From a bacterium (lineage in GTDB: Bacteria > Patescibacteriota > Minisyncoccia > Phycocordibacterales > Phycocordibacteraceae): DNA of 19,344 bases. Positions 2,899 through 19,344 of the stretch are shown here, piece after piece (positions within the stretch are counted from its first letter, which is position 1; the number at the start of each line of letters is the position of its first letter). The stretch spans positions 1 through 19,344 of the forward strand of contig JAJZRH010000001.1 in assembly GCA_021802795.1 (NCBI GenBank). Direction: 5' to 3'. The notes beneath the pieces are model-generated. The model was not told the origin of the DNA, ran no database searches, and was given only the letters and a program-made list of their open reading frames with translations. A program made the translations under genes and the position numbers.

Positions 2899-2907
2899 TG
2901 GTATACT
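2899..2907 (+). promoter_or_regulatory. extended -10 of dnaX, leaderless type
   Basis: TGGTATACT with the -10 hexamer at 2902-2907, nine bases before the ATG at 2917. There is no Shine-Dalgarno sequence. The 12-mer TTTGGTATACTC recurs before the peptidase gene at 7428. Confidence 0.6.
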
Positions 2908-2916
2908 CGGAGCACT

Positions 2917-3954
2917 ATGGCGCACCAGTCTCTTTACCGGATGTATCGTCCCGACAGGTTCGCGGACGTTGTGGGGCAGGAGCAGGTCACGAAGCCGCTT
3001 GAGGAAGCGGCCAAGTCGGGGAAGATAGGACACGCGTATTTATTTGCCGGCACGCGCGGACTGGGGAAGACCTCTGTCGCGCGCATTTTTGCAGCCGCCA
3101 TCGGTTGCACGGAGAACGATTTATATGAAGTGGACGCGGCATCGAACAACAGCGTGGAGGACATTCGCGCCCTCACCGAGGGCGTGTACACTCTCCCGTT
3201 CGCCTCGCCGTACAAGGTGTACATACTGGACGAGGTGCACATGCTCTCCAAGGGCGCGTGGAACGCATTTCTCAAAACGCTGGAAGAGCCGCCCGCGCAT
3301 GCGGTGTTCATACTCGCCACGACCGAGCTCGCGAAAGTGCCGGAGACGGTGCAGTCGCGCTGCCAGGTGTTTGAGTTCAAGAAGCCCACGCGCGCCGTAC
3401 TCGCCAAGATGACGGCGGCGGTGGCGAAGAAGGAGGGGTACGCACTCGCGAGCGACGCCGCCGAACTCATCGCCATGCTCGGCGACGGCTCGTACCGCGA
3501 TGCGCTTTCGGTGTTGCAGAAGGTGATTGCGGGTGCGGACGAGAAGTCGCTTTCGCGCGAAGCGGTGGAAGCGGCTACCGGCGCGCCGCGCCGCGAGCAG
3601 GTGAATGCGCTCGTAAGCGCGCTCGCCGGAGGCGAGCGCGGCAAAGCGCTGGAAGCGATTGAGAAGGCATCAAAGGCGGATGTGGATATGAAGCTCTTCC
3701 TGGAGCTCGTGCTGGAAGCGCTTCGCGCCACGCTCCTCATCCGTTACGCGCCGGAACTCCGCGCCTCGCTCGCAGACGAACTCGGCGCGGACGAATTCTC
3801 CGCACTGGAGAAGTTCGCCGCCGGCAAAGGCATCACGCACGCCGCCATGCTCGCATTCCTCAACGCCGCCGACCGCATCCGCTACGCGCCGATTCCGGCG
3901 CTTCCTTTGGAGCTCGCCGTTCTGGAGCTCTTTCCTGACGGAGGAGGGAAGTAG
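2917..3954 (+). CDS. dnaX: DNA polymerase III gamma subunit, compact form
   Basis: This is an AAA+ clamp-loader ATPase that opens the sliding clamp during replication. Visible motifs in order are: YRPDRFADVVGQEQV at the start; Walker A GTRGLGKTS (residues 45-53); EVDAASNNSVEDIR; Walker B ILDEVHML with DEVH at 105-108; EEPPAHAVFILATTE (sensor 1); SRC with the arginine finger at 147-149; and GSYRDALS (sensor 2). Two departures from the family are clear. The four-cysteine zinc module normally between Walker A and the EIDAAS motif is gone, leaving only IGCTEND. At 345 residues there is also no tau extension for binding helicase or polymerase alpha. It stands alone with a leaderless-type promoter, back to back with the gene at 2150-2830. 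Confidence 0.95.
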   Translation: MAHQSLYRMYRPDRFADVVGQEQVTKPLEEAAKSGKIGHAYLFAGTRGLGKTSVARIFAAAIGCTENDLYEVDAASNNSVEDIRALTEGVYTLPFASPYKVYILDEVHMLSKGAWNAFLKTLEEPPAHAVFILATTELAKVPETVQSRCQVFEFKKPTRAVLAKMTAAVAKKEGYALASDAAELIAMLGDGSYRDALSVLQKVIAGADEKSLSREAVEAATGAPRREQVNALVSALAGGERGKALEAIEKASKADVDMKLFLELVLEALRATLLIRYAPELRASLADELGADEFSALEKFAAGKGITHAAMLAFLNAADRIRYAPIPALPLELAVLELFPDGGGK

Positions 3955-3975
3955 TGGTAGAGTTTCCTTGTGCGA

Positions 3976-4068
3976 TGAGCCGGTTCGCTCGCCGGTAAGC
4001 CCTACGGGCTTTCTAGCAGCGTTCGCCTCGCAAATACGAAAGAGGACTTTCGCATTTGACTCGGCTCA
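3976..4068 (+). other. structured non-coding segment upstream of tRNA-Gln
   Basis: TGAGCCG (3976-3982) pairs with CGGCTCA (4062-4068). Inside are AAGCCC/GGGCTT around TAC (3997-4011) and a long hairpin 4031-4058 with CGAAAG/CTTTCG around AGGA. The TGGTAGAGT just upstream (3955-3963) could be a promoter, so this may be the 5' part of the tRNA precursor, or a palindromic repeat next to it. ORFs drawn through it run on into the tRNA and are not credible. Confidence 0.45.
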
Positions 4069-4093
4069 CTTGCTAATAGGCCAGCAGCCTTTG

Positions 4094-4189
4094 TTCTGTG
4101 CAGAGCTGGGGGATCGTCTAACGGTAGGACAGGAGCCTTTGAAGCTCTTAATTTTGGTTCGACTCCAAGTCCCCCAGCTCTGCACAGAA
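4094..4189. repeat. 20-bp inverted repeat enclosing the tRNA
   Basis: Bases 4094-4113 are perfectly complementary to 4170-4189. Seven of these pairs are the acceptor stem of tRNA-Gln; the other thirteen extend the helix beyond the mature tRNA, pairing the discriminator G4177 with C4106. Confidence 0.9.
4107..4177 (+). tRNA. trnQ: tRNA-Gln (anticodon UUG)
   Basis: The full cloverleaf can be drawn. The acceptor stem is TGGGGGA (4107-4113) with TCCCCCA (4170-4176). The D stem is GTCT/GGAC. The anticodon arm is GGAGC-CTTTGAA-GCTCT, with TTG at 4139-4141. The variable loop has four bases, and the T arm has loop TTCGACT (4158-4164). The discriminator is G, as in other glutamine tRNAs, and CCA is not encoded. 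It lies inside a longer inverted repeat, so the precursor should carry a 13-bp extension of the acceptor helix that RNase P and the 3' nuclease must handle. Confidence 0.95.
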
Positions 4190-4197
4190 ACGCCGTG

Positions 4198-4219
4198 AAT
4201 CTTGGTTCGATTCCAAGTC
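4198..4219 (+). other. tRNA T-arm remnant
   Basis: This 22-nt stretch matches 4150-4171 of the tRNA-Gln gene at 20 positions and forms a perfect T arm (CTTGG, TTCGATT, CCAAG). The rest of a tRNA is missing. It could be an attachment-site scar or a decayed tRNA copy; it sits at the left edge of the AT-rich island. Confidence 0.6.
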
Positions 4220-4253
4220 TCGCGGACAGTTTGAGATAGGCACAGATTCCGAG

Positions 4254-4259
4254 TATTAT
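4254..4259 (+). promoter_or_regulatory. -10 box, leaderless type
   Basis: TATTAT, six bases before the ATG at 4266. It decides the start in favour of ATG 4266 over GTG 4260. Confidence 0.6.
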
Positions 4260-4265
4260 GTGATT

Positions 4266-5054
4266 ATGGTCAGAAAAAAAGAACCGGAACCAGTCGAAGC
4301 ACATCTTTCCTTCCAACAAATGAAGGAGGCTATTCCCAAGATAGATAGGCGACTCGCCGAACTCAATGAGCTTGATGTGAGTTCCATAACCGAATATGGA
4401 GACGCGAAGGTTCAGGCACTTGAGAACAAGCTCGATACATTGCTCGTATCAATTTTCGGTTCCGGTACTGTCGAATACAATCGTTATCGTCATAGTGCTA
4501 CAACAATTATGCCTATAACTTTCTGGCCACACATGACCCCTAATGAGGTTCAGGAAGGGGTAAAAAGAGGGCTTGAAAACGCTAAACAACAGCTCGAAAG
4601 TATCAAGTCACTATTTACTGAGGAGTTACAGGATGCCGGACAGAGTCTCGGAGGAAAGGCTCTTAAGGCCTATGAAGGATTGGAATTGCATCCTGCCATT
4701 GAACGGGCTGCAGGCTCTCTGTATAAAAATGGCCATTATGCGAACGCTATCGAGGATGCAGTTAAAGCACTTAACGCATTGGTTAGGATGAATAGTGGAA
4801 TCGATGACAAAGATGGAACGACGTTGATGGAGTTTGTTTTTAGTCCGAAAAGTCCTGTTCTAAAATTTAACAGTCTCAGTGACTCGTCAGATTTAGATGA
4901 ACAAAAGGGTTTTATGATGATGTTTTCCGGGGCAGTCGCAGGTCTAAGAAATCCCAGAGCTCATAAAATTATTTTAGATGATCCTGAAATGGCACTTGAA
5001 TTCATTGCATTCATAAGTTTACTGGCGAAATTGGCGGATAAAAGCTCCAAGTAA
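4266..5054 (+). CDS. TIGR02391/Ymh-family HEPN protein
   Basis: 262 residues. The C-terminal half carries the marks of the TIGR02391 (Hypoth_Ymh) family: LHPAIERAAGSLYKNGHYANAI, a KALNALVRMNSG helix, DGTTLMEFVFSPKSPVL, DEQKGFMMMFSGAVAGLRNPRAHK and a final DDPEMALEFIAFISLLAKL. The RNPRAH segment (residues 228-233) fits the R-x4-H motif of HEPN RNases; the Ymh family is placed in the HEPN superfamily, and members often occur in defence or mobile contexts. The N-terminal 140 residues are charged and helical and are not recognised. Base composition is clearly more AT-rich than in the flanking housekeeping genes. It lies beside a tRNA and a T-arm remnant, as expected for acquired DNA. RNase activity is inferred from the motif only. 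Confidence 0.85.
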   Translation: MVRKKEPEPVEAHLSFQQMKEAIPKIDRRLAELNELDVSSITEYGDAKVQALENKLDTLLVSIFGSGTVEYNRYRHSATTIMPITFWPHMTPNEVQEGVKRGLENAKQQLESIKSLFTEELQDAGQSLGGKALKAYEGLELHPAIERAAGSLYKNGHYANAIEDAVKALNALVRMNSGIDDKDGTTLMEFVFSPKSPVLKFNSLSDSSDLDEQKGFMMMFSGAVAGLRNPRAHKIILDDPEMALEFIAFISLLAKLADKSSK

Positions 5055-5090
5055 GACTCCGAGGAGCGTCGAAATGACGTCTAGAAAAGC

Positions 5091-5106
5091 GACTGGGTAC
5101 CCAGTC
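5091..5106. repeat. 16-bp perfect palindrome after the Ymh-like gene
   Basis: GACTGGGTACCCAGTC is self-complementary. It lies 36 bp after the stop codon in a 170-bp gap that holds no clear gene. There is no T tract, so it is not a classical terminator. Confidence 0.75.
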
Positions 5107-5206
5107 AGCGTTTGATGGAGGATTTTCCGACGCCGGCGAGGCCATCCATCTTGAGCCAGGATTGAAGTTCGAAGAACATAGACTACCGATTTCGATCGGA
5201 CAGTGT

Positions 5207-5212
5207 TAGAAT
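5207..5212 (+). promoter_or_regulatory. -10 box of the zinc-ribbon gene
   Basis: TAGAAT, twelve bases before the ATG at 5225, predicting a leader of only a few bases. A small hairpin with a TTCG loop (5186-5199) precedes it. Confidence 0.5.
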
Positions 5213-5224
5213 CACCTTGAAATT

Positions 5225-6082
5225 ATGGCCAATAAACAATTTCTCGAAGAATTCCCCTTGTACAGAATATTTTCTTTTGAGCCACGTAAAAACTGGGAGC
5301 GTTTTGCAATTGAAGAACTCCCAACCCCTGCAATAAATCTATATTGCGACAATTGTGGATCTGTCCAAACCTATAACGTAAATGAGGCCACCAAATATAC
5401 TCAGCCCTATGGCTTCACGAACAATCATATATTTCGTCTTCAGTATATCTGTACGGGCTGTCACCAGAATGTCAGGGAGTTTTTTCTAAAGTTTAACGAA
5501 CTTAGTACCTTCGACGAAGAGAATAAAGAACATATTTATCAATTACAAATGAAAAAAGTCGGACAGTACCCCGCATGGAATATTGACATGGATGTGGAAG
5601 TTGAGAAATTGCTTGGAGACCATGCTGATCTTTATAAGAAAGGACTCACCTGCGAGTCTCAGGGCTATGGAATTGGTGCTTATTCCTATTATCGTCGAAT
5701 AGTCGAGGAAATAATAGACCAGCTTCTTGTATCTATAGAGGAATTAATTCCTGCCGAGGACAAAGAAAAATATGCCGCTGCTCTTGTCGAGGTAAAGAAA
5801 ACCACAGTCACCCAAGATAAGATTGAGCTTGTAAAAAATTTACTCCCAGCCAGCCTCCGTCCAAATAATATAAATCCCTTGGGCGCACTGCACTCAGCGT
5901 TGAGCGAAGGACTTCATGCTGAAAGTGAGGAAGAGTGTCTTGAGTATGCGGAGGCAGTCAGGGATGCTTTAGTTTTTCTAGTGAATCGACTCATCAGGAC
6001 CAAATCAGAGAATCAGTCTTTTACTGAGAGCATGAAAAAACTACTTGATAAAAAGAGTGGCAAGAGTCAAAAAAGTAAATGA
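5225..6082 (+). CDS. zinc-ribbon protein, possibly HEPN/DUF4145-like
   Basis: 285 residues, function unknown. Near the N-terminus C41-x2-C44 and C76-x2-C79 form a probable zinc ribbon. The middle part (ESQGYGIGAYSYYRRIVEEI) and the later LHSALSEGLHAESEEECL recall uncharacterised DUF4145-like proteins that have a zinc ribbon followed by a helical HEPN-like bundle, but no clear R-x4-6-H motif is visible, so this is tentative. The tail is lysine/serine-rich. It has the same AT-rich composition as the Ymh-like gene 170 bp upstream and reads in the same direction, which suggests the two arrived together. It has its own -10 box, so co-transcription is not required. A 70-bp repeat begins four bases after the stop. 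Confidence 0.75.
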   Translation: MANKQFLEEFPLYRIFSFEPRKNWERFAIEELPTPAINLYCDNCGSVQTYNVNEATKYTQPYGFTNNHIFRLQYICTGCHQNVREFFLKFNELSTFDEENKEHIYQLQMKKVGQYPAWNIDMDVEVEKLLGDHADLYKKGLTCESQGYGIGAYSYYRRIVEEIIDQLLVSIEELIPAEDKEKYAAALVEVKKTTVTQDKIELVKNLLPASLRPNNINPLGALHSALSEGLHAESEEECLEYAEAVRDALVFLVNRLIRTKSENQSFTESMKKLLDKKSGKSQKSK

Positions 6083-6085
6083 AGA

Positions 6086-6155
6086 GGGGATTTCGTAAAC
6101 CCCCACTTTGAACCGACCGGTCGGACCGACACCAGCACCCGCGCATGGGCGGCGG
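6086..6155. repeat. 70-bp repeat, copy A
   Basis: Matches 6761-6829 at most positions, with a shared GGATTTCGTAAACCCC start and a TTTGAACCGACCGG core. It includes the perfect palindrome CCGACCGGTCGG and ends in a GC-rich CGCGCATGGGCGGCGG stretch, directly before a -10 box. Confidence 0.8.
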
Positions 6156-6157
6156 GG

Positions 6158-6163
6158 TATACT
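6158..6163 (+). promoter_or_regulatory. -10 box of the Nudix gene
   Basis: TATACT right after repeat copy A, 21 bases before the ATG at 6185. The upstream in-frame GTG at 6164 abuts the box and could not be transcribed from it. Confidence 0.5.
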
Positions 6164-6184
6164 GTGTGGAACGGCATAAACCAT

Positions 6185-6733
6185 ATGGACGGAAGAATTT
6201 TAAATATTGTTGATGAAGCGGGGAATACGGTAGGGCAGGCGACCCGCGAGGAGATACATCAGAAAGGACTTCTTCATGGCGAAGTCCATGTGTGGTTCTA
6301 TACGCCCGACGGCAAGATAATCTTCCAGCACCGAGCAAAAGACAAGGACACCTATCCCGATCTGCTTGATGCAACGGTCGGTGGACATGTGGAGGTAGGG
6401 GACACCTACGAACAGACGGCGCTGAAGGAGTCCGAAGAGGAAACGGGTGTGACGCTGAATCCAGCGGACCTCACTTTCTTAGCCACTACGATAACCACTT
6501 CATTTGATGAAGTGACCGGCAAGACGAATCACCCTCGCCGAAATGTTTATGCGTATCGTTATGCCGGAGACGTCGCGGATCTGAAGGTAGAGGAAGGGAA
6601 AGCTATCGGTTTTGAAGCTTGGCCCATTGATACGCTCCTCAACCTGCCCGCCGCCGATGCTTCTCGGTTCATTCCGAATATCCTTGAGAAAGAAGGTCAG
6701 GATATCATCGCGAAAATACAGAAGCTGATGTAA
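6185..6733 (+). CDS. Nudix hydrolase
   Basis: 182 residues. Nudix enzymes cleave nucleoside diphosphates linked to another moiety, using divalent metal. The Nudix box is G67-x5-D73-x7-K81-E82-S-x-E85-E86-x-G88-V89. The consensus Glu and Arg are replaced by Asp and Lys, while the metal-binding E82, E85 and E86 are kept. The N-terminal ILNIVDEAGNTVGQATREE and LLHGEVHVWFYTPDGKIIFQ segments resemble the YfcD/isopentenyl-isomerase-like branch of the family. The substrate cannot be told. The start at 6185 is chosen by family alignment and promoter position. The gene is bracketed by two copies of a 70-bp repeat and followed by a perfect hairpin, so it may have moved as a unit. Confidence 0.9.
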   Translation: MDGRILNIVDEAGNTVGQATREEIHQKGLLHGEVHVWFYTPDGKIIFQHRAKDKDTYPDLLDATVGGHVEVGDTYEQTALKESEEETGVTLNPADLTFLATTITTSFDEVTGKTNHPRRNVYAYRYAGDVADLKVEEGKAIGFEAWPIDTLLNLPAADASRFIPNILEKEGQDIIAKIQKLM

Positions 6734-6735
6734 AT

Positions 6736-6756
6736 CTAGGACACGCCGTGTCCTAG
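6736..6756. terminator. perfect 10-bp hairpin after the Nudix gene
   Basis: CTAGGACACG (6736-6745) pairs with CGTGTCCTAG (6747-6756) around one C, starting 2 bp after the stop. There is no T tract; it may protect the mRNA 3' end or belong to the repeat element that begins at 6761. Confidence 0.5.
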
Positions 6757-6760
6757 GTAG

Positions 6761-6829
6761 GAGGATTTCGTAAACCCCACTTTGAACCGACCGGGCGGAC
6801 CGGCACAGGCACGCGCGCATGCGCGGCGG
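6761..6829. repeat. 70-bp repeat, copy B
   Basis: Second copy of the repeat at 6086-6155, in the same orientation. The central palindrome is broken by one change (CCGACCGGGCGG), and the end carries the palindrome CGCGCATGCGCG. Confidence 0.8.
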
Positions 6830-6850
6830 TATTGTTCTTAAAAACGGGTG

Positions 6851-6856
6851 TATTAT
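6851..6856 (+). promoter_or_regulatory. -10 box, leaderless type
   Basis: TATTAT, six bases before the ATG at 6863; no Shine-Dalgarno sequence. Confidence 0.55.
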
Positions 6857-6862
6857 TTCCTT

Positions 6863-7012
6863 ATGGAAATTCTTTACGCAGTAATAGGATTCGCAATAGG
6901 GATTGAAGTAGGGCGGTACCAGAAGGGCGGAACGTACGATTGGAAAAAGGCCGCGCTCGTGGCGGCGGTCGCCGCTGTCATTGCCGTTGTCGTAGCCTTC
7001 GTCATCCGCTAG
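6863..7012 (+). CDS. 49-aa membrane protein
   Basis: A short ORF, MEILYAVIGFAIGIEVGRYQ, then a polar loop (KGGTYDWKKA) and a strongly hydrophobic Ala/Val-rich helix ending FVIR. Two membrane passes are likely. It is supported as a gene by the -10 box six bases upstream, the clean hydrophobic pattern and its own downstream hairpin. Function unknown. Confidence 0.6.
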   Translation: MEILYAVIGFAIGIEVGRYQKGGTYDWKKAALVAAVAAVIAVVVAFVIR

Positions 7013-7032
7013 TTCCGTTAGGAATTGCAGTC

Positions 7033-7051
7033 GGGAGAGTTAAACTCTCCC
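7033..7051. terminator. 9-bp hairpin after the 49-aa gene
   Basis: GGGAGAGTT (7033-7041) pairs with AACTCTCCC (7043-7051) around one A. No T run follows, so termination is not certain. Confidence 0.45.
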
Positions 7052-7083
7052 AAAATGCGAAACGTGCGGGCGGGTTCGGGAGT

Positions 7084-7089
7084 TATCAT
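7084..7089 (+). promoter_or_regulatory. -10 box, leaderless type
   Basis: TATCAT, six bases before the ATG at 7096. Confidence 0.55.
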
Positions 7090-7095
7090 ACGCAT

Positions 7096-7404
7096 ATGAC
7101 CACCAAACCATTTCTGAACGCGCTCATCGCGGCCGGGTACATCGGGATTATCGTAACGATTCTTTCCAACACCCAGCAATTTGATGCGCGAAACTTCGGG
7201 ATGCTCGCTCCCGTCACGTTCCTATCCTTGCTTGTCCTGTCCGCTGCGCTTATGGGGTACCTGTTCTTCTATCAGCCCGTGCGGCTCCTCATTGAAGGGA
7301 AACAAAATGAAGCGTCAAAGTTCCTCATCTCCACCATTGCGTCATTTTTCGGCATTATGGGAACCGTCATCACCGTGTGGTTCCTCGTCGGTTCTCTGCT
7401 TTAG
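7096..7404 (+). CDS. small three-helix membrane protein, 102 aa
   Basis: Hydrophobic segments lie at about residues 8-24 (ALIAAGYIGIIVTIL), 37-58 (APVTFLSLLVLSAALMGYLFF) and 76-100 (LISTIASFFGIMGTVITVWF). Between the second and third there is a short basic and acidic loop (RLLIEGKQNEASK). I do not recognise a family with certainty. The frame is open further upstream, but the -10 box six bases before ATG 7096 fixes the start. The next gene begins 23 bp later with its own promoter. Confidence 0.75.
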   Translation: MTTKPFLNALIAAGYIGIIVTILSNTQQFDARNFGMLAPVTFLSLLVLSAALMGYLFFYQPVRLLIEGKQNEASKFLISTIASFFGIMGTVITVWFLVGSLL

Positions 7405-7412
7405 TACCGGTT

Positions 7413-7421
7413 TGGTATACT
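7413..7421 (+). promoter_or_regulatory. extended -10, leaderless type
   Basis: TGGTATACT with the hexamer at 7416-7421, six bases before the ATG at 7428; same 12-mer as before dnaX. Confidence 0.62.
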
Positions 7422-7427
7422 CACCCC

Positions 7428-8090
7428 ATGAAGCTTTTGCTCACTTCGTCGGGAATGAGTAATGGATCCATTGCTCGCGCCCTCTCAGAACTCGCGAGGC
7501 GTCCGCTCTCCGAGCTCTCCATCATCCACATCCCGACTGCCGCGAATTCGTGGGGCGACGACAAAGGTTGGGTGATTGATAACCTCGTTGACCTTCAGAA
7601 GCAGATTTTCAAGGCGATTGACATAGTAGATGTTTCGGCAGTCCCGGCGGAAGTGTGGAAGCCGCGCTTTATGGCCGCGGACGTTATCTCTGTCGGGGGG
7701 GGCGAGGAACAATATCTTGCGAAAGTTTTTAGAGAGGCTGGGATGAAAGAGTTCCTGCTTTCCGTTCCGGATACCAAGGTATACATGGGGACGAGTGCGG
7801 GGAGCATGGTCGCCGGACAGTTCCTGCCCTACGGAGTGCTTAAAATTATCTATCCGGAAGAAGATTTTGGCGATCTACTCGAAAGCCCCATGGGTTTCTA
7901 TGATTTCCTATTCATACCCCACCTGAATTCAAAGTGGTTTACCCATGTGACGGAAGAGAACCTGGAGAACCTCAAAGACAAATTTGAGCATTCGGCATAC
8001 GCCACCGACGACGAAACCGCGATAAAGATAGATGGCGCGAAATTTGAGATTGTCGGGGGAGGCGCGCACTGGGAGTACCGCAAACCATGA
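7428..8090 (+). CDS. peptidase E (S51) family protein
   Basis: 220 residues. Members of this family are serine peptidases with a class-I-amidotransferase-like fold; peptidase E cuts Asp-X dipeptides in the cytoplasm. The nucleophile elbow is GTSAGSM with Ser123. VISVGGGEEQYLAKVF upstream is the usual Gly-rich substrate loop, and FIPHLNSKW supplies the likely catalytic His. The C-terminal DDETAIKIDGAKFEIVGGGA is also typical. Length matches the family. The start is fixed by a TATACT box six bases upstream. Its stop overlaps the next start (ATGA, 8087-8090), so the two are translationally coupled. A cyanophycinase-like role is less likely, given the short length. Confidence 0.88.
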   Translation: MKLLLTSSGMSNGSIARALSELARRPLSELSIIHIPTAANSWGDDKGWVIDNLVDLQKQIFKAIDIVDVSAVPAEVWKPRFMAADVISVGGGEEQYLAKVFREAGMKEFLLSVPDTKVYMGTSAGSMVAGQFLPYGVLKIIYPEEDFGDLLESPMGFYDFLFIPHLNSKWFTHVTEENLENLKDKFEHSAYATDDETAIKIDGAKFEIVGGGAHWEYRKP

Positions 8091-8488
8091 CCCTCATCGA
8101 GGAAGCGAAACAGCTCAATTTCCCGCCGGGGGAATATGTCATCGTCGGGAGCGGTCCGCTTGAGGCGCTCGGCATACGCACCGCGAGCGATATAGACATA
8201 GCGGTCACGCCCGCGCTTCACGCGCGTTTGCGAACGACAGGGGAGTGGGAAGAGGAGGAGCGGTACGGAAAGATATTCCTCAAGAAAGGAAGAGTGGACA
8301 TCAATCCGCACCTCTCGTGGGAGGAGTACCCGACCACGACCGAAGAAGCCATCGCCTCGGCAATGGTGATAGACGGAATTTATTTTATGAACCTCAACGA
8401 ACTGAAGAAGTTCAAGCAGGCGCTGGGGCGGGAGAAAGATTTCGCCGACATCGAGCGCATTGATGCGTATTTGAAGGAGAAACACTAA
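8087..8488 (+). CDS. nucleotidyltransferase-fold protein, 133 aa
   Basis: The protein has YVIVGSGPLEALGIR followed by SDIDIAV. This is the G-S...D-x-D arrangement of the nucleotidyltransferase fold, with helix-starting GS and a metal-binding Asp pair. A later VDINPHL could give the third acidic residue. The C-terminal helix LNELKKFKQALGREKDFADIERI resembles that of AbiEii-like and other minimal nucleotidyltransferases. It overlaps the peptidase gene by four bases and has no promoter of its own. Its target is unknown. The family call is by motif and moderately sure. Confidence 0.68.
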   Translation: MTLIEEAKQLNFPPGEYVIVGSGPLEALGIRTASDIDIAVTPALHARLRTTGEWEEEERYGKIFLKKGRVDINPHLSWEEYPTTTEEAIASAMVIDGIYFMNLNELKKFKQALGREKDFADIERIDAYLKEKH

Positions 8489-8489
8489 T

Positions 8490-8738: not shown

Positions 8739-8748
8739 CACGGGTGTA

Positions 8749-8757
8749 TGCTATAGA
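8749..8757 (+). promoter_or_regulatory. extended -10 upstream of candidate RNA
   Basis: TGCTATAGA; a TTGACA at 8735-8740 is too close (11 bp) to serve as its -35 box. Confidence 0.35.
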
Positions 8758-8763
8758 CAGCGT

Positions 8764-8851: not shown

Positions 8852-8879
8852 CCATTTGGCTCTTTTGGCGCACTTCAGC

Positions 8880-8885
8880 TAGAAT
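8880..8885 (+). promoter_or_regulatory. -10 box, near-leaderless type
   Basis: TAGAAT, nine bases before the ATG at 8895. Confidence 0.5.
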
Positions 8886-8894
8886 GGCTTCACT

Positions 8895-11397: not shown

Positions 11398-11403
11398 TAT
11401 ACT
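11398..11403 (+). promoter_or_regulatory. -10 box, leaderless type
   Basis: TATACT, eight bases before the ATG at 11412. Confidence 0.6.
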
Positions 11404-11935: not shown

Positions 11936-11944
11936 TGGTATCAT
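11936..11944 (+). promoter_or_regulatory. extended -10, near-leaderless type
   Basis: TGGTATCAT with the hexamer at 11939-11944, nine bases before the ATG at 11954. Confidence 0.58.
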
Positions 11945-12720: not shown

Positions 12721-12724
12721 GGTG

Positions 12725-12730
12725 TATCAT
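12725..12730 (+). promoter_or_regulatory. -10 box, leaderless type
   Basis: TATCAT, six bases before the ATG at 12737. Confidence 0.6.
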
Positions 12731-12736
12731 AGGGTC

Positions 12737-13456
12737 ATGAACGTCATCCTTGTTGCGCTTGCCGCCTCGGCGGCCACCTTTATCGGCGGTTCCTTCGCAC
12801 TGCGGTTCCGCGACAAGCTCCACCTCATCCTCGGCTTCTCGGCGGGCGCGGTGGCGGGAGTGGCGCTCTTTGATCTGTTGCCGGAAGCTATCGATCTGGG
12901 CACTAAGTATCACAGCGCCGCGACCGTCGCGCTTTTCATTGCGGCCGGGCTCTTCGGCTACCTCATCCTGGATCGGCTCATCCTCCTCCATACGCACGAA
13001 GAAGACGATGAAGCGAACGCGCCGCGCGGATTCTTCGGCGCATTCACGCTCGCGGCGCACAGCTTCCTTGACGGCATCGCTATCGGCATCGGCTTCCAGG
13101 CGTCCGCGGCGGTCGGCGTGGTGGTGACCGCCGCCGTACTTACGCACGACTTCTCCGACGGCATCAACACGGTGAATCTGGTGCTGAAGAACGGCGGGCA
13201 TTGGCGCCGCGCGTTCCAGTGGCTTCTCGTGGATGCGGCGGCGCCCCTCTTAGGCGCCGCGTCCACGCTCTTCTTCACCATTCCCGAATCGGCCATCGGG
13301 CTCGTGCTCGCCGTCTTCGTCGGCTCCTTCCTGTACCTTTCGGCGAGCGACCTCATTCCCGAGAGCCATCACCGGCACCCGCGCGCGCTCACGACCGTGA
13401 TGACTTTGCTTGGCGCGCTCGTCCTCTACACGGTCGTGCGTCTGGTATCATTCTAA
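12737..13456 (+). CDS. ZIP-family divalent metal transporter
   Basis: 239 residues, about seven or eight membrane helices. ZIP proteins move zinc, iron or similar ions into the cytoplasm. The metal-site helices are visible: H108-S-F-L-D112-G in helix 4 and H137-D-F-S-D141-G in helix 5, where many ZIPs have HExP. DLLPEAIDLG and DLIPESHH are the other conserved patches. The loop LLHTHEEDDEANAPR between the third and fourth helices is His/Asp/Glu-rich, as in many ZIP proteins. The last codons contain the -10 box of the next gene. The ion carried cannot be told from sequence. Confidence 0.9.
   Translation: MNVILVALAASAATFIGGSFALRFRDKLHLILGFSAGAVAGVALFDLLPEAIDLGTKYHSAATVALFIAAGLFGYLILDRLILLHTHEEDDEANAPRGFFGAFTLAAHSFLDGIAIGIGFQASAAVGVVVTAAVLTHDFSDGINTVNLVLKNGGHWRRAFQWLLVDAAAPLLGAASTLFFTIPESAIGLVLAVFVGSFLYLSASDLIPESHHRHPRALTTVMTLLGALVLYTVVRLVSF
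13443..13451 (+). promoter_or_regulatory. extended -10 inside the ZIP gene end
   Basis: TGGTATCAT with the hexamer at 13446-13451, seven bases before the ATG at 13459. Confidence 0.58.
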
Positions 13457-13458
13457 GT

Positions 13459-13791: not shown

Positions 13792-13799
13792 GACATTTC

Positions 13800-13805
13800 T
13801 ATAAT
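13800..13805 (+). promoter_or_regulatory. consensus -10 box, leaderless type
   Basis: TATAAT, six bases before the ATG at 13812. Confidence 0.65.
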
Positions 13806-13811
13806 GCTTTT

Positions 13812-14021
13812 ATGATCGACCCCGAACTGCTCGCCAAACTTGAGGAGATAAACGCGAAAGCGGAAAAGGCGTATCAGGCCGCCGAATCAACGCGCAAATA
13901 TCTCTTTTGGACGGGCGTCGTCACCGTCGCGCTCATCGTACTTCCGCTCATCGGCCTCGCGTTCGCGATACCGCAATTCATCAGTTCGTATACGACCACG
14001 CTCACCGGCGCTGGTTTGTAG
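13812..14021 (+). CDS. small single-helix membrane protein, 69 aa
   Basis: An N-terminal charged amphipathic helix (LLAKLEEINAKAEKAYQAAE) is followed by a membrane helix (FWTGVVTVALIVLPLIGLAF) and a short tail. Unrecognised. Similar small proteins with a helix-plus-anchor layout are common in this kind of genome. A consensus -10 box six bases upstream supports it. It converges on the DedA gene, whose stop is six bases away; the GC-rich GCGCGC inverted repeat at 14035-14051 may help end both transcripts. Confidence 0.7.
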   Translation: MIDPELLAKLEEINAKAEKAYQAAESTRKYLFWTGVVTVALIVLPLIGLAFAIPQFISSYTTTLTGAGL

Positions 14022-14027
14022 AACTCT

Positions 14028-14645
14028 TTAGACCGCGCGCTTGCCGCGCGCGAGATTGAGGACGATAGGGAGGAATGAAATGGCGATAATGACGAGCGAG
14101 AGCGGGAGCACGTATTTCTCGCTGTCCGGAATAAGCGAGCCGAGGAAATAGCCGAGCGAGACCATGCCCGCTCCCCAGAGGAAGCCGCCGATGACGTTGT
14201 AGGAGAGGAATTTCCGGTACTGCATCCCGCTCACGCCGGCGAGGATGGGAGCGATGGTGCGCACGACGGGTACGAAGCGCGCAAGGACGACCGCCCGGCC
14301 GCCGTATTTTTGGTAGAAGCGCTCGGTGCGTTTCAAGTATTCCTGTTTGAAGAAACGGGAGTCTTTGCGTTCAAAGAGATGATCGCCGACCTCCGCGCCG
14401 AACCAGTAGCCGACCGAATCGCCGAGTATGGCCGCGGCCACGACGATCATCATCAAAGGGCCGGCGACGAAGAACCCGCTTGCCGCGAACAGCCCCGCCG
14501 CAAAGAGGAGCGAATCGCCCGGCAAGAATATGCCGAAGAACAGCCCGCTCTCGGCGAATATGAGGAAAGCCACGCCGAGGTAACTGCCCGCCTTGATGAT
14601 GGCGATAGGGTCCAGATGTATACACGCGAGAAGAAAGTTGAGCAT
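14028..14645 (-). CDS. DedA-family membrane protein
   Basis: 205 residues. DedA/VTT proteins are membrane proteins, several of which help recycle lipid carriers such as undecaprenyl phosphate. FAESGLFFGIFLPGDSLLFA is the conserved re-entrant segment with its acidic residue, and VLARFVPVVRTIAPILAG the second, with the two conserved arginines. GDSVGYWFGAEVG lies between them, and hydrophobic helices fill the rest. ATG 14645 is chosen because the leftward -10 box ends eight bases upstream; a longer frame would start beyond it. It shares a palindromic promoter with the ATPase gene transcribed the other way. Confidence 0.92.
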   Translation of the reverse strand: MLNFLLACIHLDPIAIIKAGSYLGVAFLIFAESGLFFGIFLPGDSLLFAAGLFAASGFFVAGPLMMIVVAAAILGDSVGYWFGAEVGDHLFERKDSRFFKQEYLKRTERFYQKYGGRAVVLARFVPVVRTIAPILAGVSGMQYRKFLSYNVIGGFLWGAGMVSLGYFLGSLIPDSEKYVLPLSLVIIAISFLPIVLNLARGKRAV

Positions 14646-14653
14646 TCGGGTGC

Positions 14654-14661
14654 AGTATACT
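14654..14661. promoter_or_regulatory. one palindrome acting as -10 box in both directions
   Basis: AGTATACT reads as TATACT on both strands. Rightward the hexamer (14656-14661) is seven bases from ATG 14669; leftward (14659-14654) it is eight bases from the start at 14645. Confidence 0.65.
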
Positions 14662-14668
14662 GTATGAA

Positions 14669-17440
14669 ATGGAATCGGCACCAAAGTTGTCCACGCCCGA
14701 AGAGGAGCTCGCATATCTGCGCGAACGCATCGCGCACAAGGAAGCGGAGGTTGCGGCGCGCGGGGTTTCGCCCGACGAGACGGACCGCGCGTACATCGTT
14801 TCCGAACAGATACGCGAGCATCATGCCGCGCCGCAAGAGCGGCTCGCGGAAGGGTATCGCGTGAGCGACGCCACGAGAGAGAGCGAAGCGGCGGCGCTGC
14901 TCGCGGAGCTCAACCTCGGCGGCGGCGCGGGCGCCATAGACAGCCTGCGCAAGACGATGGAGGAGAAGGGTATCAAGAACGCGCTCCACGTGCTCGAGAA
15001 GCTCCGCGACCCGCACATCGCGGACGACTTCCACCGCTATCTCGTGCGCTACATCGCCGCGGGCATTACGGCGCCCGGGCTCGACGAGAAAGCGCCGCGC
15101 TTCCAGGCGCTTCATATGACGCTCTACGAAATAGCGCTCCCGGGGCCCAAATCGGCGGAACCGAATGCGCGAGCGAAAACGCTCAAGGAACTCATTTCCG
15201 CTATGGAGCAGTTCTATGCCGGGCTCCTTTCCGTGGACGATGCGTCAACCGGCGAGTCCCGCTATTTTGCGCTTGAGCTTGCCGTGCCCGCGGACAGCCC
15301 CGAGCTCCAGTTCTACGCGGCGGTGCCGAACAGCAAGCGCAATCTTTTTGAAAAACAGCTCCTTGCGATATTTCCCGATGCGCATCTGGTGCCTCAGCCG
15401 TTCGATTACAACATCTTCGTCCGCGAAGGCGTGTCGCTCGCTTCCACGGCGCGCTTCACCGACAATCCCGTCCTGCCCTTGAAGGACTATACCGACTTTG
15501 ATTACGACCCCATCAATGCGGTCATCAATGCGTTCGCGAAGATAGAACACGAGGGTGAAGGCGCCGCGCTCCAGATAATCGTGGAGCCGCGCGGCGACCG
15601 GCACGTGAAGCATTACCGCAAGATCCTGCAGGCGCTCCGCAAGGGTGAGAAGCGCGCATCGGCGTTCAGCACCCCTGAAACCGCGCTCGGCGAAGTGTTC
15701 CGCGATTTCGGAAAGACGCTCTTCGGTAGCAAGCCGAAGGATGTGGAGAAAGCGAAAGAGGCGGAGACGCGCCAGATAGAAGCGAACAAAGCATACATCG
15801 AGCAAGTGGAGAAGAAGATAGCGGCGCCGATCGTCGGCGCGACGATACGACTGGCCGTATCGTCGCGCAACGAGAACACGGCGGAGCAGGTGCTCGGCGA
15901 TCTGGAAGCGGCATTCAATCAGTTCGCGAACACGCAAGGGAACCAACTGCAATTTGTGCGCGCCGAGGGGCACCATGCACAGGAAGCGTTCGATAATTTC
16001 TCGTTCCGCCTGCCGGACGCCGCCGCGCTCCCGCTCTCTCTGCGGGAGCTCACGACGATGTACCATTTCCCGCCCATGGGCATCGAGAGCTCTCCGCACT
16101 TGAAGCAGGCGCGCTTCACGCACGCACCCGCGCCCGCTACGCTCCCGCAAACGGGCGCTCTGCTCGGCATAAATTCGTTCCGCGGGCAGGAGACGCGCGT
16201 GTACCTGGAACCCGAGGATCGCCTACGCCATCTCTACATCATCGGCCAGACCGGCACCGGCAAGACGGGACTGATGAAGTCCATGATCATCCAAGATATA
16301 CAGGGGGGCGAGGGCTGCTGCTTCATCGACCCGCACGGCTCCGACATCCTGGACATCCTCGCCGCGGTGCCGCCCGAACGGTACAAGGACGTCATCTACT
16401 TCGACCCCGCCGACCTTTCGCGCCCGTTCGCGCTCAATTTCTTGGAATACGATCTCTCGCGTCCCGAGCAAAAGACCTTCATCGTGAACGAGCTCCTGAT
16501 GATATTCAAGCGGCTCTACGGCGATGTGCCCGAGTCTATGGGACCCGCGTTCGAACAGTACTTCAGGAACGCGACCCAGCTTGTGATGGAGGATCCGGCG
16601 AGCGGTTCCACCATCCTGGACATCGCGCGCGTGCTCAGTAATAGCGAGTTCCGCCGCGAAAAGCTCGCAAAGAGCATGAACCCCATCGTGAACCAATTCT
16701 GGAATGAAATAGCGACGAAGGCCGGCGGGGAAGCATCGCTTGAAAATATCGTCCCGTACATCACGAATAAATTCGACGACTTTACCGCAAACGATTTCAT
16801 CCGCCCCATCGTCGGCCAGCAGGAATCCTCGTTCAAGTTCCGCGAGGTAATGGACGACAAGAAGATACTCCTCATCAATCTTTCCAAGGGCCGCTTGGGA
16901 GAGAAGAATGCGAACCTGCTCGGCCTCATCATCGTCGGCAAGCTCTTCATGGCGGCGCTCTCGCGCGCCGACAACCCCCGTGCGCCGTACCCGCCGTTCT
17001 ACCTGTACATCGACGAATTCCAGAACGTAACGACCGACTCCATCCCCGGCATCCTCTCCGAGGCGCGCAAATACAAGCTGGCGCTCACGGTGGCGCACCA
17101 GTTCCTCAGCCAGATAGAAGAGAAGGCGCGCGACGCCGTCTTCGGCAACGTGGGGAATATGGCGGTCTTCCGCGTGGGCGAAGAGGACGCGGAGTTCTTC
17201 ACGAAGCAATTTGCGCCGGTCTTTGAAGCGCTCGATTTTGTGAACATCGAGAACCGCAATGCCTATGTGAAGCTGCTCGCCGCGGGCGTGCCGCAGAAGC
17301 CGTTCGATATGAAGACGCCGGATCTGCCGCCGTTGAACCACGCGCAGACGGACGATCTCATCCACCTCTCTTCGCTCACCTATGGACGCGATCGTGCTAC
17401 CGTTGAAAATATGATACGAGAGCGGTATCTCTCGCGCTGA
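14669..17440 (+). CDS. VirD4/TraD-like conjugation-type ATPase
   Basis: 923 residues. The C-terminal half is a P-loop motor. Walker A is GQTGTGKT (526-533), followed by CCFIDPHGSDILDILA and VIYFDPADLSRPFALNFLEY. ILLINLSKGRLGEKNANLLG is next, then Walker B FYLYIDEFQN with D782-E783, and the sensor-like ALTVAHQFLSQI. This order matches TraD/VirD4 coupling-type and related HerA-like ATPases. The N-terminal half (about 500 residues) is soluble and mostly alpha/beta, with no obvious membrane helix, unlike classical VirD4. Proteins of this layout are widespread in CPR genomes, where they may serve DNA transfer, pili or uptake. No relaxase or VirB proteins are in the window. The downstream coiled-coil gene starts 4 bp after the stop and is probably co-expressed. 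Confidence 0.9.
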   Translation: MESAPKLSTPEEELAYLRERIAHKEAEVAARGVSPDETDRAYIVSEQIREHHAAPQERLAEGYRVSDATRESEAAALLAELNLGGGAGAIDSLRKTMEEKGIKNALHVLEKLRDPHIADDFHRYLVRYIAAGITAPGLDEKAPRFQALHMTLYEIALPGPKSAEPNARAKTLKELISAMEQFYAGLLSVDDASTGESRYFALELAVPADSPELQFYAAVPNSKRNLFEKQLLAIFPDAHLVPQPFDYNIFVREGVSLASTARFTDNPVLPLKDYTDFDYDPINAVINAFAKIEHEGEGAALQIIVEPRGDRHVKHYRKILQALRKGEKRASAFSTPETALGEVFRDFGKTLFGSKPKDVEKAKEAETRQIEANKAYIEQVEKKIAAPIVGATIRLAVSSRNENTAEQVLGDLEAAFNQFANTQGNQLQFVRAEGHHAQEAFDNFSFRLPDAAALPLSLRELTTMYHFPPMGIESSPHLKQARFTHAPAPATLPQTGALLGINSFRGQETRVYLEPEDRLRHLYIIGQTGTGKTGLMKSMIIQDIQGGEGCCFIDPHGSDILDILAAVPPERYKDVIYFDPADLSRPFALNFLEYDLSRPEQKTFIVNELLMIFKRLYGDVPESMGPAFEQYFRNATQLVMEDPASGSTILDIARVLSNSEFRREKLAKSMNPIVNQFWNEIATKAGGEASLENIVPYITNKFDDFTANDFIRPIVGQQESSFKFREVMDDKKILLINLSKGRLGEKNANLLGLIIVGKLFMAALSRADNPRAPYPPFYLYIDEFQNVTTDSIPGILSEARKYKLALTVAHQFLSQIEEKARDAVFGNVGNMAVFRVGEEDAEFFTKQFAPVFEALDFVNIENRNAYVKLLAAGVPQKPFDMKTPDLPPLNHAQTDDLIHLSSLTYGRDRATVENMIRERYLSR

Positions 17441-17444
17441 ATGT

Positions 17445-18905
17445 ATGCCCGAAAACGATCCCACGAAGAAAAAATCCGCGAGAAGGCCGTTTAATCCGGA
17501 TACCTATGTCGAGGGTGCAAGGAAGGTTTATGCGAGGATCGGCAAAGAACTCCAAGATCAGGGCGTTGACGTCGCGAATCTCCCGGGAGAAGTGTTTGCG
17601 CCGGCCAACACGACGATCGAGAATTTGTACGGTCTTGCCAAAGAGTACGAGAAAGAAACTAAGCCGGGGAAAAAGAAGTATCTTGCGGCTCGTATGCGGC
17701 GAGCGAAGGCTCATTTGGGGAAGAACGTTGTCGCTGAAATTGAAGAGAAGGTACAGGGACTGAGGACGACCGAAGAGATCCGAGCGCACCTAGCCAAGCC
17801 CGTCGAACCTCCTCCCGCGCGAGAACCAGCGCCGTCGGAAACCATTCCCAAGATCGAACCTCGGCAGGATATTGATGACGTCCAGCGGTTACGCGCGGAG
17901 ATACGAGAACTGGAAGCGGAAGCGGCGAAGCCCGGAGCGAGGAAAGACATAGAAAAGGACATCCTCATGCGCGAAGGAGCGCTCCGGGCGCTCGAGGCGG
18001 CGAAGGCCGCCGGCTCAAAAGGAGAGGCCAAGACCGGTCGCGCACGGGAGATACGCGAGCGTCTTGCTACGCTCGAGCGGGAAGCGGCGAGCCCGGCCGA
18101 TTATCGCCATAATCACGACGAGCTTGAAAAAGAAGTTCTTGCGCTGGAGAAGGAATTGCGGGAACGGGAAACAAAAACTCCGGCTTCTGAGAAGAAACCG
18201 GACACCCCTTTCTTCTCCGCACGGAACGGACCGCCCGGCAAAGAGGAGGGATCCGCTGAAGAGCAGCCGTGGTCCCCGTCGCCGCTTGAGGAACAGCAGA
18301 GCGCTGTGCAGGGGGAGCTGTATGAACGGTATCGACGCAATGCCGAGGGGCCGTTTGAATTTGACGCCGTTCCGGAATCGGTCCACGAGAAGGTCAAAGA
18401 TTTTTTTGATACCCGCTCAAAAAATATTCCGCCGGGTGGCACGATACCGGAAAGCGAAATTAACGCGTTCCTTGCGGAGCAGCTCGCGGCGGCGGGGAAG
18501 GAGGAACAAGTCGAAGGGCACGCGGCGACAGAGGAGCAGGGCGCACATGCCGCGGAGTCGCTCGCGCATGAAGAGACCGATCGGAGTGCGGAGACGGACA
18601 ACGTTCAGCGACCTTCGCCGCCCGCACAGGAAGCCGGGCCGATCGACGAGCCGATCATCCCGAATCCAGATGACGCGATCGATCCGGAGCATGCGTGGGC
18701 AATGCGGCGCGCGGGTGCAACAGGAAAAGCGGAACCGGAAGCGGAGAGAAGCGCTCGCGAGGAACGCGCGTCATGGAAAACGGGAATTGAGACCCGCGAT
18801 GATGGTCTCGAGTATGTCAGCATCGTCCCGCCGGCTTTTGCCGAGGGCACGCGCCGCGAGTGGTACGAGAAACTGGCGGACCTTATCAAAAAGTTGACCA
18901 AATAA
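17445..18905 (+). CDS. coiled-coil protein downstream of the ATPase, 486 aa
   Basis: Unrecognised. The first 110 residues are basic and helical ([20 protein letters not shown] and so on). Residues about 140-250 hold two similar helical repeats, [20 protein letters not shown] and then [20 protein letters not shown], each followed by an acidic second helix; these look like coiled-coil hairpins from an internal duplication. The rest is Glu/Ala/Pro-rich and probably disordered, ending with a conserved-looking [16 protein letters not shown]. No signal peptide or membrane helix. It starts 4 bp after the ATPase stop, with no promoter or clear ribosome-binding site, so it probably depends on translation of the ATPase. 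It may be an adaptor or scaffold for it; this is inference. Confidence 0.8.
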
Positions 18906-18933
18906 CCCGTGGTATGATACTGCCCAAGTCGAG

Positions 18934-18939
18934 TATAAT
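18934..18939 (+). promoter_or_regulatory. consensus -10 box, near-leaderless type
   Basis: TATAAT, nine bases before the ATG at 18949. A second possible box, TGGTATGAT (18910-18918), lies upstream. Confidence 0.6.
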
Positions 18940-18948
18940 AATCGCCAT

Positions 18949-19344
18949 ATGAAACCAACCCAGACCGGTATCGCCACAGCGCTTGCGCTCGTTGTCGTTA
19001 TTATGTTCTTCATCCTCCCGGGGCTTTCGCCCTTTGGACAGCCGTCCACGCCTCCGCAGGAGGCGGCGACTGTTGAGTTCGCCACTACCACTAACCAAAC
19101 CGCGCAAGCCGCACCAACCACTATGCCCGCTGAAACGAAACCGATAACACAGCTTATGATGAAGGATGAAGTCGTCGGCACGGGCGCAGTCGCGGCCGCA
19201 GGCGACACGGTGACCGTGCAGTACGTCGGCGCGCTCACGAACGGAACCGTCTTCGACGCATCCGCCAATCACGGTACGAGCGGGTTCACCTTCAAGCTCG
19301 GAGCGGGGCAGGTCATCAAGGGCTGGGATGAGGGCGTCGCCGGT
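18949..19344 (+). CDS. FKBP-type peptidyl-prolyl isomerase, cut by window end
   Basis: 132 residues are visible and the frame is open at the window edge. A signal anchor ([19 protein letters not shown]) is followed by a Pro/Thr/Ala-rich linker. The start of an FKBP domain comes next: [20 protein letters not shown], then [16 protein letters not shown] with the conserved Y and FD, then [18 protein letters not shown] with the V-I-x-G-W-D active-site strand. About 40 residues are missing. The enzyme would speed proline isomerisation of exported proteins at the cell surface, a natural companion to the DsbA-like protein at 11954. Confidence 0.93.

What the first reader, a model, noticed from the sequence alone, without database searches (positions are those of the whole stretch)
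2899..18951. Genome style of leaderless mRNAs: -10 boxes 6-12 nt from the start codon
At 2917, 4266, 5225, 6863, 7096, 7428, 8895, 11412, 11954, 12737, 13459, 13812, 14669, 18949 and 14645 (minus), a TATAAT-like hexamer (TATACT, TATCAT, TATTAT, TAGAAT, TATAAT) ends 6-12 nt before the start codon, with no Shine-Dalgarno. As transcription starts about 7 nt after the -10 box, these mRNAs should have leaders of 0-5 nt. Several boxes carry the extended TGG prefix and no clear -35 box. Leaderless expression is established in Deinococcus and Actinobacteria; here it appears to be the default.
Basis: partly seen in the sequence, partly recalled or inferred. Interest (0 to 1): 0.75.

Follow-up and report, generated by a model that had tools for sequence, protein, structure and literature searches.

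The report
Probable leaderless genes in Kaiserbacteria relative
In this tiny uncultured bacterium many genes carry the promoter's -10 box only 6-9 bases before the start codon, so their messages should begin at the start codon itself, and the 16S genes of its relatives lack the usual sequence by which ribosomes find messages.

Summary
14 of the 15 named sites have a TATAAT-like hexamer (one mismatch at most) ending 6-9 nt before the start codon; the one at 5225 is at 12. The window belongs to a relative of Ca. Kaiserbacteria. Over 630 genes of six genomes of its order, called without looking upstream, 136 have the box at gap 6-9 against about 14 expected; gaps 5 and 10 are nearly empty. The consensus is an extended -10, TGGTATAMT. 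Of 242 aligned orthologous starts, 161 keep the box and none has a Shine-Dalgarno motif. Best reading: promoters of leaderless mRNAs. 'Default' overstates it: 27% (strict) to 39% (two mismatches) of genes not packed behind another have the box, and 226 of 574 genes have neither box nor packing. New: the anti-SD core CCUCC is missing from 28 of 28 readable 16S ends of the family, and the signature appears in 12 of 16 other phylum members, 11 of them with intact anti-SD. The mechanism is known from Deinococcus; my searches found no report for Patescibacteria. No transcript ends are available.

The parts
2902..2907 (+). -10 box TATACT (TGG prefix), gap 9 to ATG 2917 (dnaX-like gene)
   Evidence: 4 of 8 orthologs have a box at gap 6-9
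4254..4259 (+). -10 box TATTAT, gap 6 to ATG 4266 (Hypoth_Ymh family)
   Evidence: no ortholog with aligned start in the loci
5207..5212 (+). TAGAAT at gap 12 to ATG 5225: outside the 6-9 peak, doubtful
   Evidence: no ortholog with aligned start
6851..6856 (+). -10 box TATTAT, gap 6 to ATG 6863
   Evidence: 1 of 1 ortholog
7084..7089 (+). -10 box TATCAT, gap 6 to ATG 7096
   Evidence: 1 of 3 orthologs
7416..7421 (+). -10 box TATACT (TGG prefix), gap 6 to ATG 7428 (peptidase S51 family)
   Evidence: no ortholog with aligned start
8880..8885 (+). -10 box TAGAAT, gap 9 to ATG 8895
   Evidence: 8 of 12 orthologs
11398..11403 (+). -10 box TATACT, gap 8 to ATG 11412 (NUDIX)
   Evidence: 3 of 3 orthologs
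11939..11944 (+). -10 box TATCAT (TGG prefix), gap 9 to ATG 11954 (DsbA/thioredoxin family)
   Evidence: 11 of 13 orthologs
12725..12730 (+). -10 box TATCAT, gap 6 to ATG 12737 (ZIP transporter family)
   Evidence: 14 of 21 orthologs
13446..13451 (+). -10 box TATCAT (TGG prefix), gap 7 to ATG 13459; lies inside the 3' end of the preceding gene
   Evidence: 23 of 34 orthologs
13800..13805 (+). -10 box TATAAT, gap 6 to ATG 13812
   Evidence: only 2 of 20 orthologs have it
14654..14661 (.). Palindrome AGTATACT: holds TATACT for both strands, gap 7 to ATG 14669(+) and gap 8 to ATG 14645(-)
   Evidence: 45 of 48 (14669) and 34 of 40 (14645) orthologs have a box
18934..18939 (+). -10 box TATAAT, gap 9 to ATG 18949 (FKBP)
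   Evidence: 15 of 39 orthologs

Best explanation
The hexamers are sigma-70-type, often extended (TGN) -10 promoter elements placed so that RNA polymerase, which starts about 7-10 nt beyond the -10 box, puts the first nucleotide on the A of the AUG (or at most 3 nt before it). The mRNAs are leaderless. A ribosome recognises the 5'-terminal AUG directly (inferred: the 70S or IF2/fMet-tRNA route established for leaderless mRNA elsewhere). Genes packed behind another gene mostly lack a box and an SD, and are probably read by reinitiation. In this family the 16S anti-SD has decayed, consistent with little or no SD-guided initiation. Shown by sequence: motif, position, conservation, anti-SD loss in relatives. 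Inferred: transcript 5' ends, ribosome route, reinitiation.
For: Peak at gaps 6-9 in six genomes of the order: 26/143, 34/152, 35/159, 13/65, 14/63, 14/48 with 2.3, 2.0, 2.6, 1.3, 2.7, 3.0 expected. TANNNT over 630 genes: gap 9:47, 8:42, 7:54, 6:100, against 12.7 per position at gaps 17-39. Of 703 internal ATGs 1 has a box at gaps 6-9. EM with free gap converges on TGGTATAMT; TGN before 83 of 181 confident boxes. Strict box in 118 of 432 genes not within 20 nt behind a called same-strand gene (contig-edge genes included), against 18 of 198 that are. 161 of 242 aligned orthologous starts have the box, 0 of 242 AGGAG/GGAGG/GAGGA. Divergent pair 14645/14669: AGTATACT in 21 of 21 loci with a divergent ORF and 4 of 25 without, as a DNA-level promoter should behave. 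CCTCC absent in 28 of 28 readable family 16S ends. Controls: annotated D. deserti plasmid starts show the same kind of peak with TANNNT (15 of 69 at gaps 6-8), E. coli does not (1 of 48 at gaps 6-9).
Against: No transcript 5' ends exist here. Gene starts are predicted, not measured. 226 of 574 genes have neither a two-mismatch box at the chosen start nor an upstream same-strand gene within 20 nt (56 of 630 genes without a known neighbour left out). 262 of 432 unpacked genes lack even a two-mismatch box at the chosen start. Some orthologs lack it (13812: 2 of 20; 18949: 15 of 39). A pyrimidine at -1 is common with and without a box, so it is no evidence for a start at the A. Purines at -2 and -3 do not separate a 0-nt from a 1-3-nt leader. 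With strict boxes and my own start calls the D. deserti control gave 0 of 60. The own genome shows a small, not significant excess of SD-like motifs (11 against 5 of 143).
Confidence: 0.87

Rival explanations
1. Variant within the best explanation: the boxes are promoters, but transcription starts a fixed 7 nt downstream, so genes with gaps 7-9 have leaders of 1-3 nt and are only near-leaderless.
For: Gap 6 is the commonest single gap (100 of 243 TANNNT hits at 6-9), dominates in G206 (10 of 14), and gaps 6 and 7 hold 21 of 22 in G156. mRNAs with very short 5' UTRs count as leaderless in Deinococcus work (PMC12340547, passages seen).
Against: Gap 10 is as empty as gap 5 in the G015 and G014 samples (0 each), which fits a start-site window that must include the A of AUG; nothing in the bases before the AUG decides.
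Confidence: 0.25
2. The motif is a translation signal in a leader (a Kozak-like or S1-type element), not a promoter, as argued for Bacteroidetes.
For: Flavobacterium johnsoniae lacks SD sequences yet most of its transcripts are leadered (PMC6847099, passages seen); S1-domain matches occur in 30 of 30 genomes searched.
Against: The motif is the extended -10 with a weak -35 excess at spacers 16-17, is three times rarer before packed genes, and is palindromic in 21 of 21 loci where a divergent ORF abuts it. A translation element would not need to be symmetric.
Confidence: 0.05
3. Chance or start-calling artefact.
Against: Starts were called from coding potential and first ATG only. The peak is absent at internal ATGs (1 of 703) and out-of-frame starts (5 of 432 against 143 of 432 in frame), in E. 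coli, and not significant at p < 0.01 in 7 of 28 Patescibacteria genomes (G097, G125, G152, G079, G113, G134, G115), so the method does not produce it everywhere.
Confidence: 0.01
4. A variant SD pairs with the altered 16S tail (GGAUAU or GGAAUU instead of GGAGG).
For: The tail is nearly uniform (AUAUCC in 19 of 28 ends, AAUUCC in 7, AUUUCC in 1, ACUUCC in 1), which could mean a function.
Against: Complementary motifs are not clearly enriched upstream of starts: own 2 of 143 (controls 5 and 1), G015 6 of 152 (3 and 2), G014 1 of 159 (7 and 4), G007 0 of 65 (1 and 2), G177 2 of 63 (5 and 2).
Confidence: 0.03

Closest known systems
ORF-adjacent -10 motif / leaderless genes of Deinococcus-Thermus (Zhong et al. 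2025, PMC12340547; abstract and passages seen)
   Same: TANNNT box about 6-7 bp before nearly a third of D. radiodurans genes, shown there to act as a -10 promoter; a -35 enhances but is not needed.
   Different: Here the gap spreads over 6-9 in the family, the box is often an extended -10 (TGG prefix), and the 16S of the family lacks CCUCC; D. radiodurans also shows an RBS motif, while the six order genomes show no significant SD excess.
TA-led (leaderless) gene class of Zheng et al. 2011 (PMC3160421; passages seen)
   Same: Same signal and same inference: TANNNT about 10-12 bp upstream of the start.
   Different: Their survey covers 953 bacterial genomes; 'candidate division' does not occur in the text. 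They call leaderless genes widespread but not dominant in bacteria.
[quoted passage not shown] section 21 read)
   Same: Loss of the CCUCC core with few SD genes; the list includes Ca. Campbellbacteria and Ca. Wolfebacteria.
   Different: That section does not tie those candidate phyla to ORF-adjacent promoters; Kaiserbacteria are not in the table shown (its full list is a supplement, and supplements cannot be opened here).
Bidirectional promoters from -10 symmetry (PMC10268837; passages seen)
   Same: A near-symmetric -10 serves both strands.
   Different: [quoted passage not shown] here the inferred starts are 24 bp apart and both RNAs would be leaderless mRNAs.

Membership tests
Leaderless (TA-led, ORF-adjacent -10) genes | TANNNT / TATAAT-like consensus | tested here: met
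   EM consensus TGGTATAMT
Leaderless (TA-led, ORF-adjacent -10) genes | Narrow position peak a few nt before the start, absent in shuffles and internal starts | tested here: met
   Gaps 6-9; shuffled 17 against 217 of 630
Leaderless (TA-led, ORF-adjacent -10) genes | No SD before the boxed genes | tested here: met
   0 of 242 orthologous starts with AGGAG/GGAGG/GAGGA; no significant SD excess in six order genomes
Leaderless (TA-led, ORF-adjacent -10) genes | Mapped transcript 5' end at the start codon | not testable with these tools
   No RNA data held
Extended -10 promoters | TGN directly before the -10 box | tested here: met
   83 of 181 confident boxes
Extended -10 promoters | Activity without a -35 element | not testable with these tools
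   Weak TTGACA excess at spacers 16-17 only; activity needs a reporter
Organisms lacking a CCUCC anti-SD | No CCUCC at the 16S 3' end of this species | not testable with these tools
   The 71.5%-complete bin holds no 16S match
Organisms lacking a CCUCC anti-SD | No CCUCC in close relatives | tested here: met
   28 of 28 readable ends among 30 loci fetched (43 of 59 family genomes had a 16S match). One of them, G011, has the 16S coordinates of the genome of L002, whose 14669 homologue is 85% identical
Bidirectional (-10 symmetric) promoters | Symmetric -10 with start sites usually 18 bp apart | tested here: inconclusive
   Symmetry met at 14654-14661; inferred spacing 24 bp, start sites not mapped

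The most novel reading that the evidence does not exclude
A whole order of Patescibacteria has given up Shine-Dalgarno initiation: its ribosomes have lost the anti-SD, and nearly all proteins are started either on a leaderless AUG made by an ORF-adjacent extended -10 promoter or by reinitiation behind a stop codon. The phylum preserves the steps on the way: SD plus some leaderless genes; leaderless with little SD but intact anti-SD; anti-SD lost. (Odds lowered from 0.45 to 0.4 on rechecking, because 226 of 574 genes show neither sign; mis-called starts and weaker boxes may account for part of them.)
Probability: 0.4. Interest if true: 0.78.

Novelty: new variant of a known kind. Interest (0 to 1): 0.6.

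Why it matters
Leaderless expression would be a widespread habit of one of the largest bacterial groups, which changes how starts are annotated in their genomes. The set of relatives offers a natural series for testing whether leaderless transcription came before the decay of the anti-SD, which is otherwise among the most conserved sequences of bacteria. It also predicts that foreign genes relying on SD sequences would be poorly translated in these cells.

Tried and rejected
Rejected: chance (gaps 5 and 10 nearly empty); a variant SD matching the altered 16S tail (no clear enrichment); Era loss as sole cause of anti-SD loss: 9 of 30 genomes pass the Era cut-off, but only G134 and G191 with one full-length match (the other 7 are split matches in ORFs of 376-472 aa, which I take for the double GTPase Der; recalled), yet CCTCC is intact in 14 of 14 readable phylum-level genomes. 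S1-domain matches occur in 30 of 30 genomes and explain nothing. IF3_C was found in 29 of 30 (not in the incomplete own bin) and scores lowest in families f1 and f2 (36-44 bits against 59-116 in the phylum-level genomes), suggestive only. bS21 in the own genome is a weak match below the cut-off (1.7e-4).

Led nowhere: bases at -1 to -4 as evidence for the exact start site; EM on internal ATGs as control (degenerate fit); D. deserti with my own start calls and strict box (0 of 60), replaced by annotated starts and TANNNT.

Dropped rows: 2 of 30 family 16S loci whose 3' end my pattern did not find (L091, L094); 2 of 24 in the survey (G079, G038); 56 of 630 genes without a known neighbour in one count, tblastn hits not aligned from residues 1-4, without a start codon there, too near a contig end, or 99.9% identical or more (number not printed). 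The 64-locus set is redundant (one gene neighbourhood), so searches were not used for rates. In one search relatives share ancestry, so no P value is claimed; the other-strand start lies 8 nt from the box in 17 of 21 loci, 7 in one, and was set at 2 in three (L006, L022, L034) where a second in-frame CAT lies nearer. Of the 4 exceptions, L005 and L024 have a GTG-type start (CAC) 8 nt away on the other strand (my reading).
Full report
WHAT THE WINDOW IS. It is contig C45 of a 477 kb, 65-contig, 71.5%-complete genome bin. A scan with its longest gene (14669-17440) gave 64 loci; the nearest (L001, 97%) is an unnamed bacterium, the next (L002, 85%) Ca. Kaiserbacteria, and most of the lineage names in the list are Kaiserbacteria or Parcubacteria.

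THE SITES. All 15 hexamers exist. 14 of 15 end 6-9 nt before the start codon with at most one mismatch to TATAAT; 5225 has its box at 12 and is doubtful. Among the 587 other ATGs of the window, 4 carry such a box. So the window is richer than the sampled rest of the genome.

POSITION. Six genomes of the order (own; G015 same genus; G014 and G007 same family; G177 and G206 same order) give 26/143, 34/152, 35/159, 13/65, 14/63 and 14/48 boxed genes with 2.3, 2.0, 2.6, 1.3, 2.7 and 3.0 expected from the same genes at gaps 16-43. Neighbouring gaps are nearly empty: in G015, gap 5 has 0 and gap 10 has 0, gaps 6-9 have 11, 6, 7, 10. With TANNNT over all 630 genes the counts are 100, 54, 42, 47 at gaps 6-9 against 12.7 per position at gaps 17-39. 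The lower limit is the distance RNA polymerase needs; the upper limit is where the start would fall short of the AUG (inference from general knowledge of start-site selection). Of 703 internal ATGs, 1 has a box at gaps 6-9; out-of-frame starts 5 of 432 against 143 of 432 in frame.

MOTIF. EM with free gap gives T-G-G-T-A-T-A-(A/C)-T and 217 of 630 genes at gaps 6-9, against 17 of 630 for shuffled upstream regions. TGN precedes 83 of 181 confident boxes. TTGACA-like hexamers are in mild excess at spacers 16 and 17 (15 and 16; about 6 on average elsewhere). It is an extended -10 promoter by sequence.

CONTEXT. Strict boxes precede 118 of 432 genes that are not within 20 nt behind a called same-strand gene (170 of 432 with two mismatches; 204 of 432 if any in-frame ATG/GTG up to 40 codons in is allowed, control 12) but only 18 of 198 genes that are. 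120 of 438 genes with a same-strand neighbour begin between 5 nt before and 9 nt after its stop: probably reinitiation (inference). Against a clean two-way scheme: of 574 genes with a known neighbour, 150 have a two-mismatch box only, 166 packing only, 32 both and 226 neither.

CONSERVATION. Orthologous starts in the 64 loci: box in 45 of 48 (14669), 34 of 40 (14645), 11 of 13 (11954), 14 of 21 (12737), 23 of 34 (13459), 15 of 39 (18949), 8 of 12 (8895), 4 of 8 (2917), 3 of 3 (11412), 1 of 3 (7096), 1 of 1 (6863), 2 of 20 (13812): 161 of 242 in all, with an SD motif in 0 of 242. No orthologs with aligned start for 4266, 5225, 7428, 17445, nor for two SD-bearing genes (11321, 10642). The loci are related and were fetched with one gene, so these are not independent trials.

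A SHARED BOX. 14645(-) and 14669(+) are 23 bp apart and share the palindrome AGTATACT. In 46 loci, 21 of 21 with a divergent ORF there have the palindrome; of 25 without, 4 have it. 18 of the 21 loci without the palindrome still have a box at gap 6-9 before the + gene, such as GGTATACT. This behaves like a promoter on DNA rather than a signal in RNA.

ANTI-SD. Of 59 family genomes searched, 43 have a 16S match; 30 loci were cut and 28 gave a readable 3' end. It is GGA(A/T)CATATCC in 19, GGA(A/T)CAATTCC in 7, GGAACATTTCC in 1 and GGATCACTTCC in 1; none has CCTCC. In the survey (22 of 24 ends readable), CCTCC is intact in the 14 readable of 16 phylum-level genomes and in class member G125; it is absent in G177 (order), G097 and G165 (class) and altered in G138 (class); G112 and G152 (class) were not readable. 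The own bin has no 16S match, nor has the genome of L001 (G210). Complementary variant SD motifs are not clearly enriched.

BREADTH. Box excess with uncorrected p < 0.01 in 21 of 28 genomes: 6 of 6 in the order, 3 of 6 other class members, 12 of 16 other phylum members; SD excess with p < 0.01 in 9 of 28, none of them in the order. Of the 12, 11 have a read and intact CCTCC and G117 no 16S match. G062, G156, G086, G121 and G191 combine box excess, no significant SD excess and an intact CCTCC. This suggests that leaderless use came before anti-SD loss; no tree was built. Samples are about 50-80 kb per genome except own (159 kb), G015 and G014 (200 kb each).

LITERATURE. Leaderless genes via an ORF-adjacent -10 are established in Deinococcus-Thermus (PMC12340547: abstract and passages) and predicted across bacteria (PMC3160421: passages). 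Loss of CCUCC in Ca. Campbellbacteria, Wolfebacteria and Absconditabacteria is in PMC10783764 (section 21 read). Most CPR lack Era, which binds that tail (PMC10582724: passages). A 2025 paper on CPR ribosome biogenesis mentions YchF, which it says promotes leaderless translation, but makes no claim about leaderless mRNAs in CPR in the passages I saw (PMC12641178). Searches combining leaderless, anti-SD or start-site terms with Patescibacteria terms showed me no report of leaderless mRNAs in this phylum among the rows listed (12-30 rows each, 10, of up to 1,190 papers). The library lacks most subscription papers, and two relevant ones are not held.

VERDICT. Observation confirmed; interpretation right in kind, too strong as 'default', and incomplete because the ribosomal half was out of sight.

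Noticed in passing
window 2830(-), 10642(-), 11321(-): Three minus-strand starts have AGGAG ending 6 nt upstream (my reading). 11321 (GNAT) and 10642 have no ortholog with an aligned start in the 64 loci (2830 was not tested there): possibly recent arrivals keeping SD leaders.
   Followed up: partly
window 4001-6000: GC drops to 0.43-0.45 around and behind tRNA-Gln (4107-4178), part of which is repeated at 4198-4219; genes 4266 and 5225 have no ortholog with aligned start in the loci: looks like an island at a tRNA gene.
   Followed up: partly
window 6088-6155 and 6763-6829: Direct repeat (88% over 58 nt, plus an identical 16-nt start) on either side of the NUDIX gene 6185-6733.
   Followed up: no
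window 6158-6185: NUDIX gene 6185 has TATACT about 21 nt before its ATG (listing): a probable short-leader exception, or another start.
   Followed up: no
L002, L017, L020, L050, L056: Where the 14669 and 14645 homologues are apart, the sequence before both genes can look alike (for example TATCTCAC.GGGTATACT in L050), as if the shared promoter had been copied (my reading).
   Followed up: no
L065-L093 (16S loci): Right after the altered tail the rDNA often shows a small inverted repeat (TCC...GGA), perhaps a processing signal of the 16S 3' end (my reading).
   Followed up: no
G005, G027, G038: 16S matches split into separate pieces along one contig, as with insertion sequences known in CPR rRNA genes (PMC11270868 seen in a listing only).
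   Followed up: no
G007, G011, G014, G015, G017: IF3 C-terminal domain matches only part of the profile (from position 2 to 49-66 of 86) in the family without anti-SD.
   Followed up: partly
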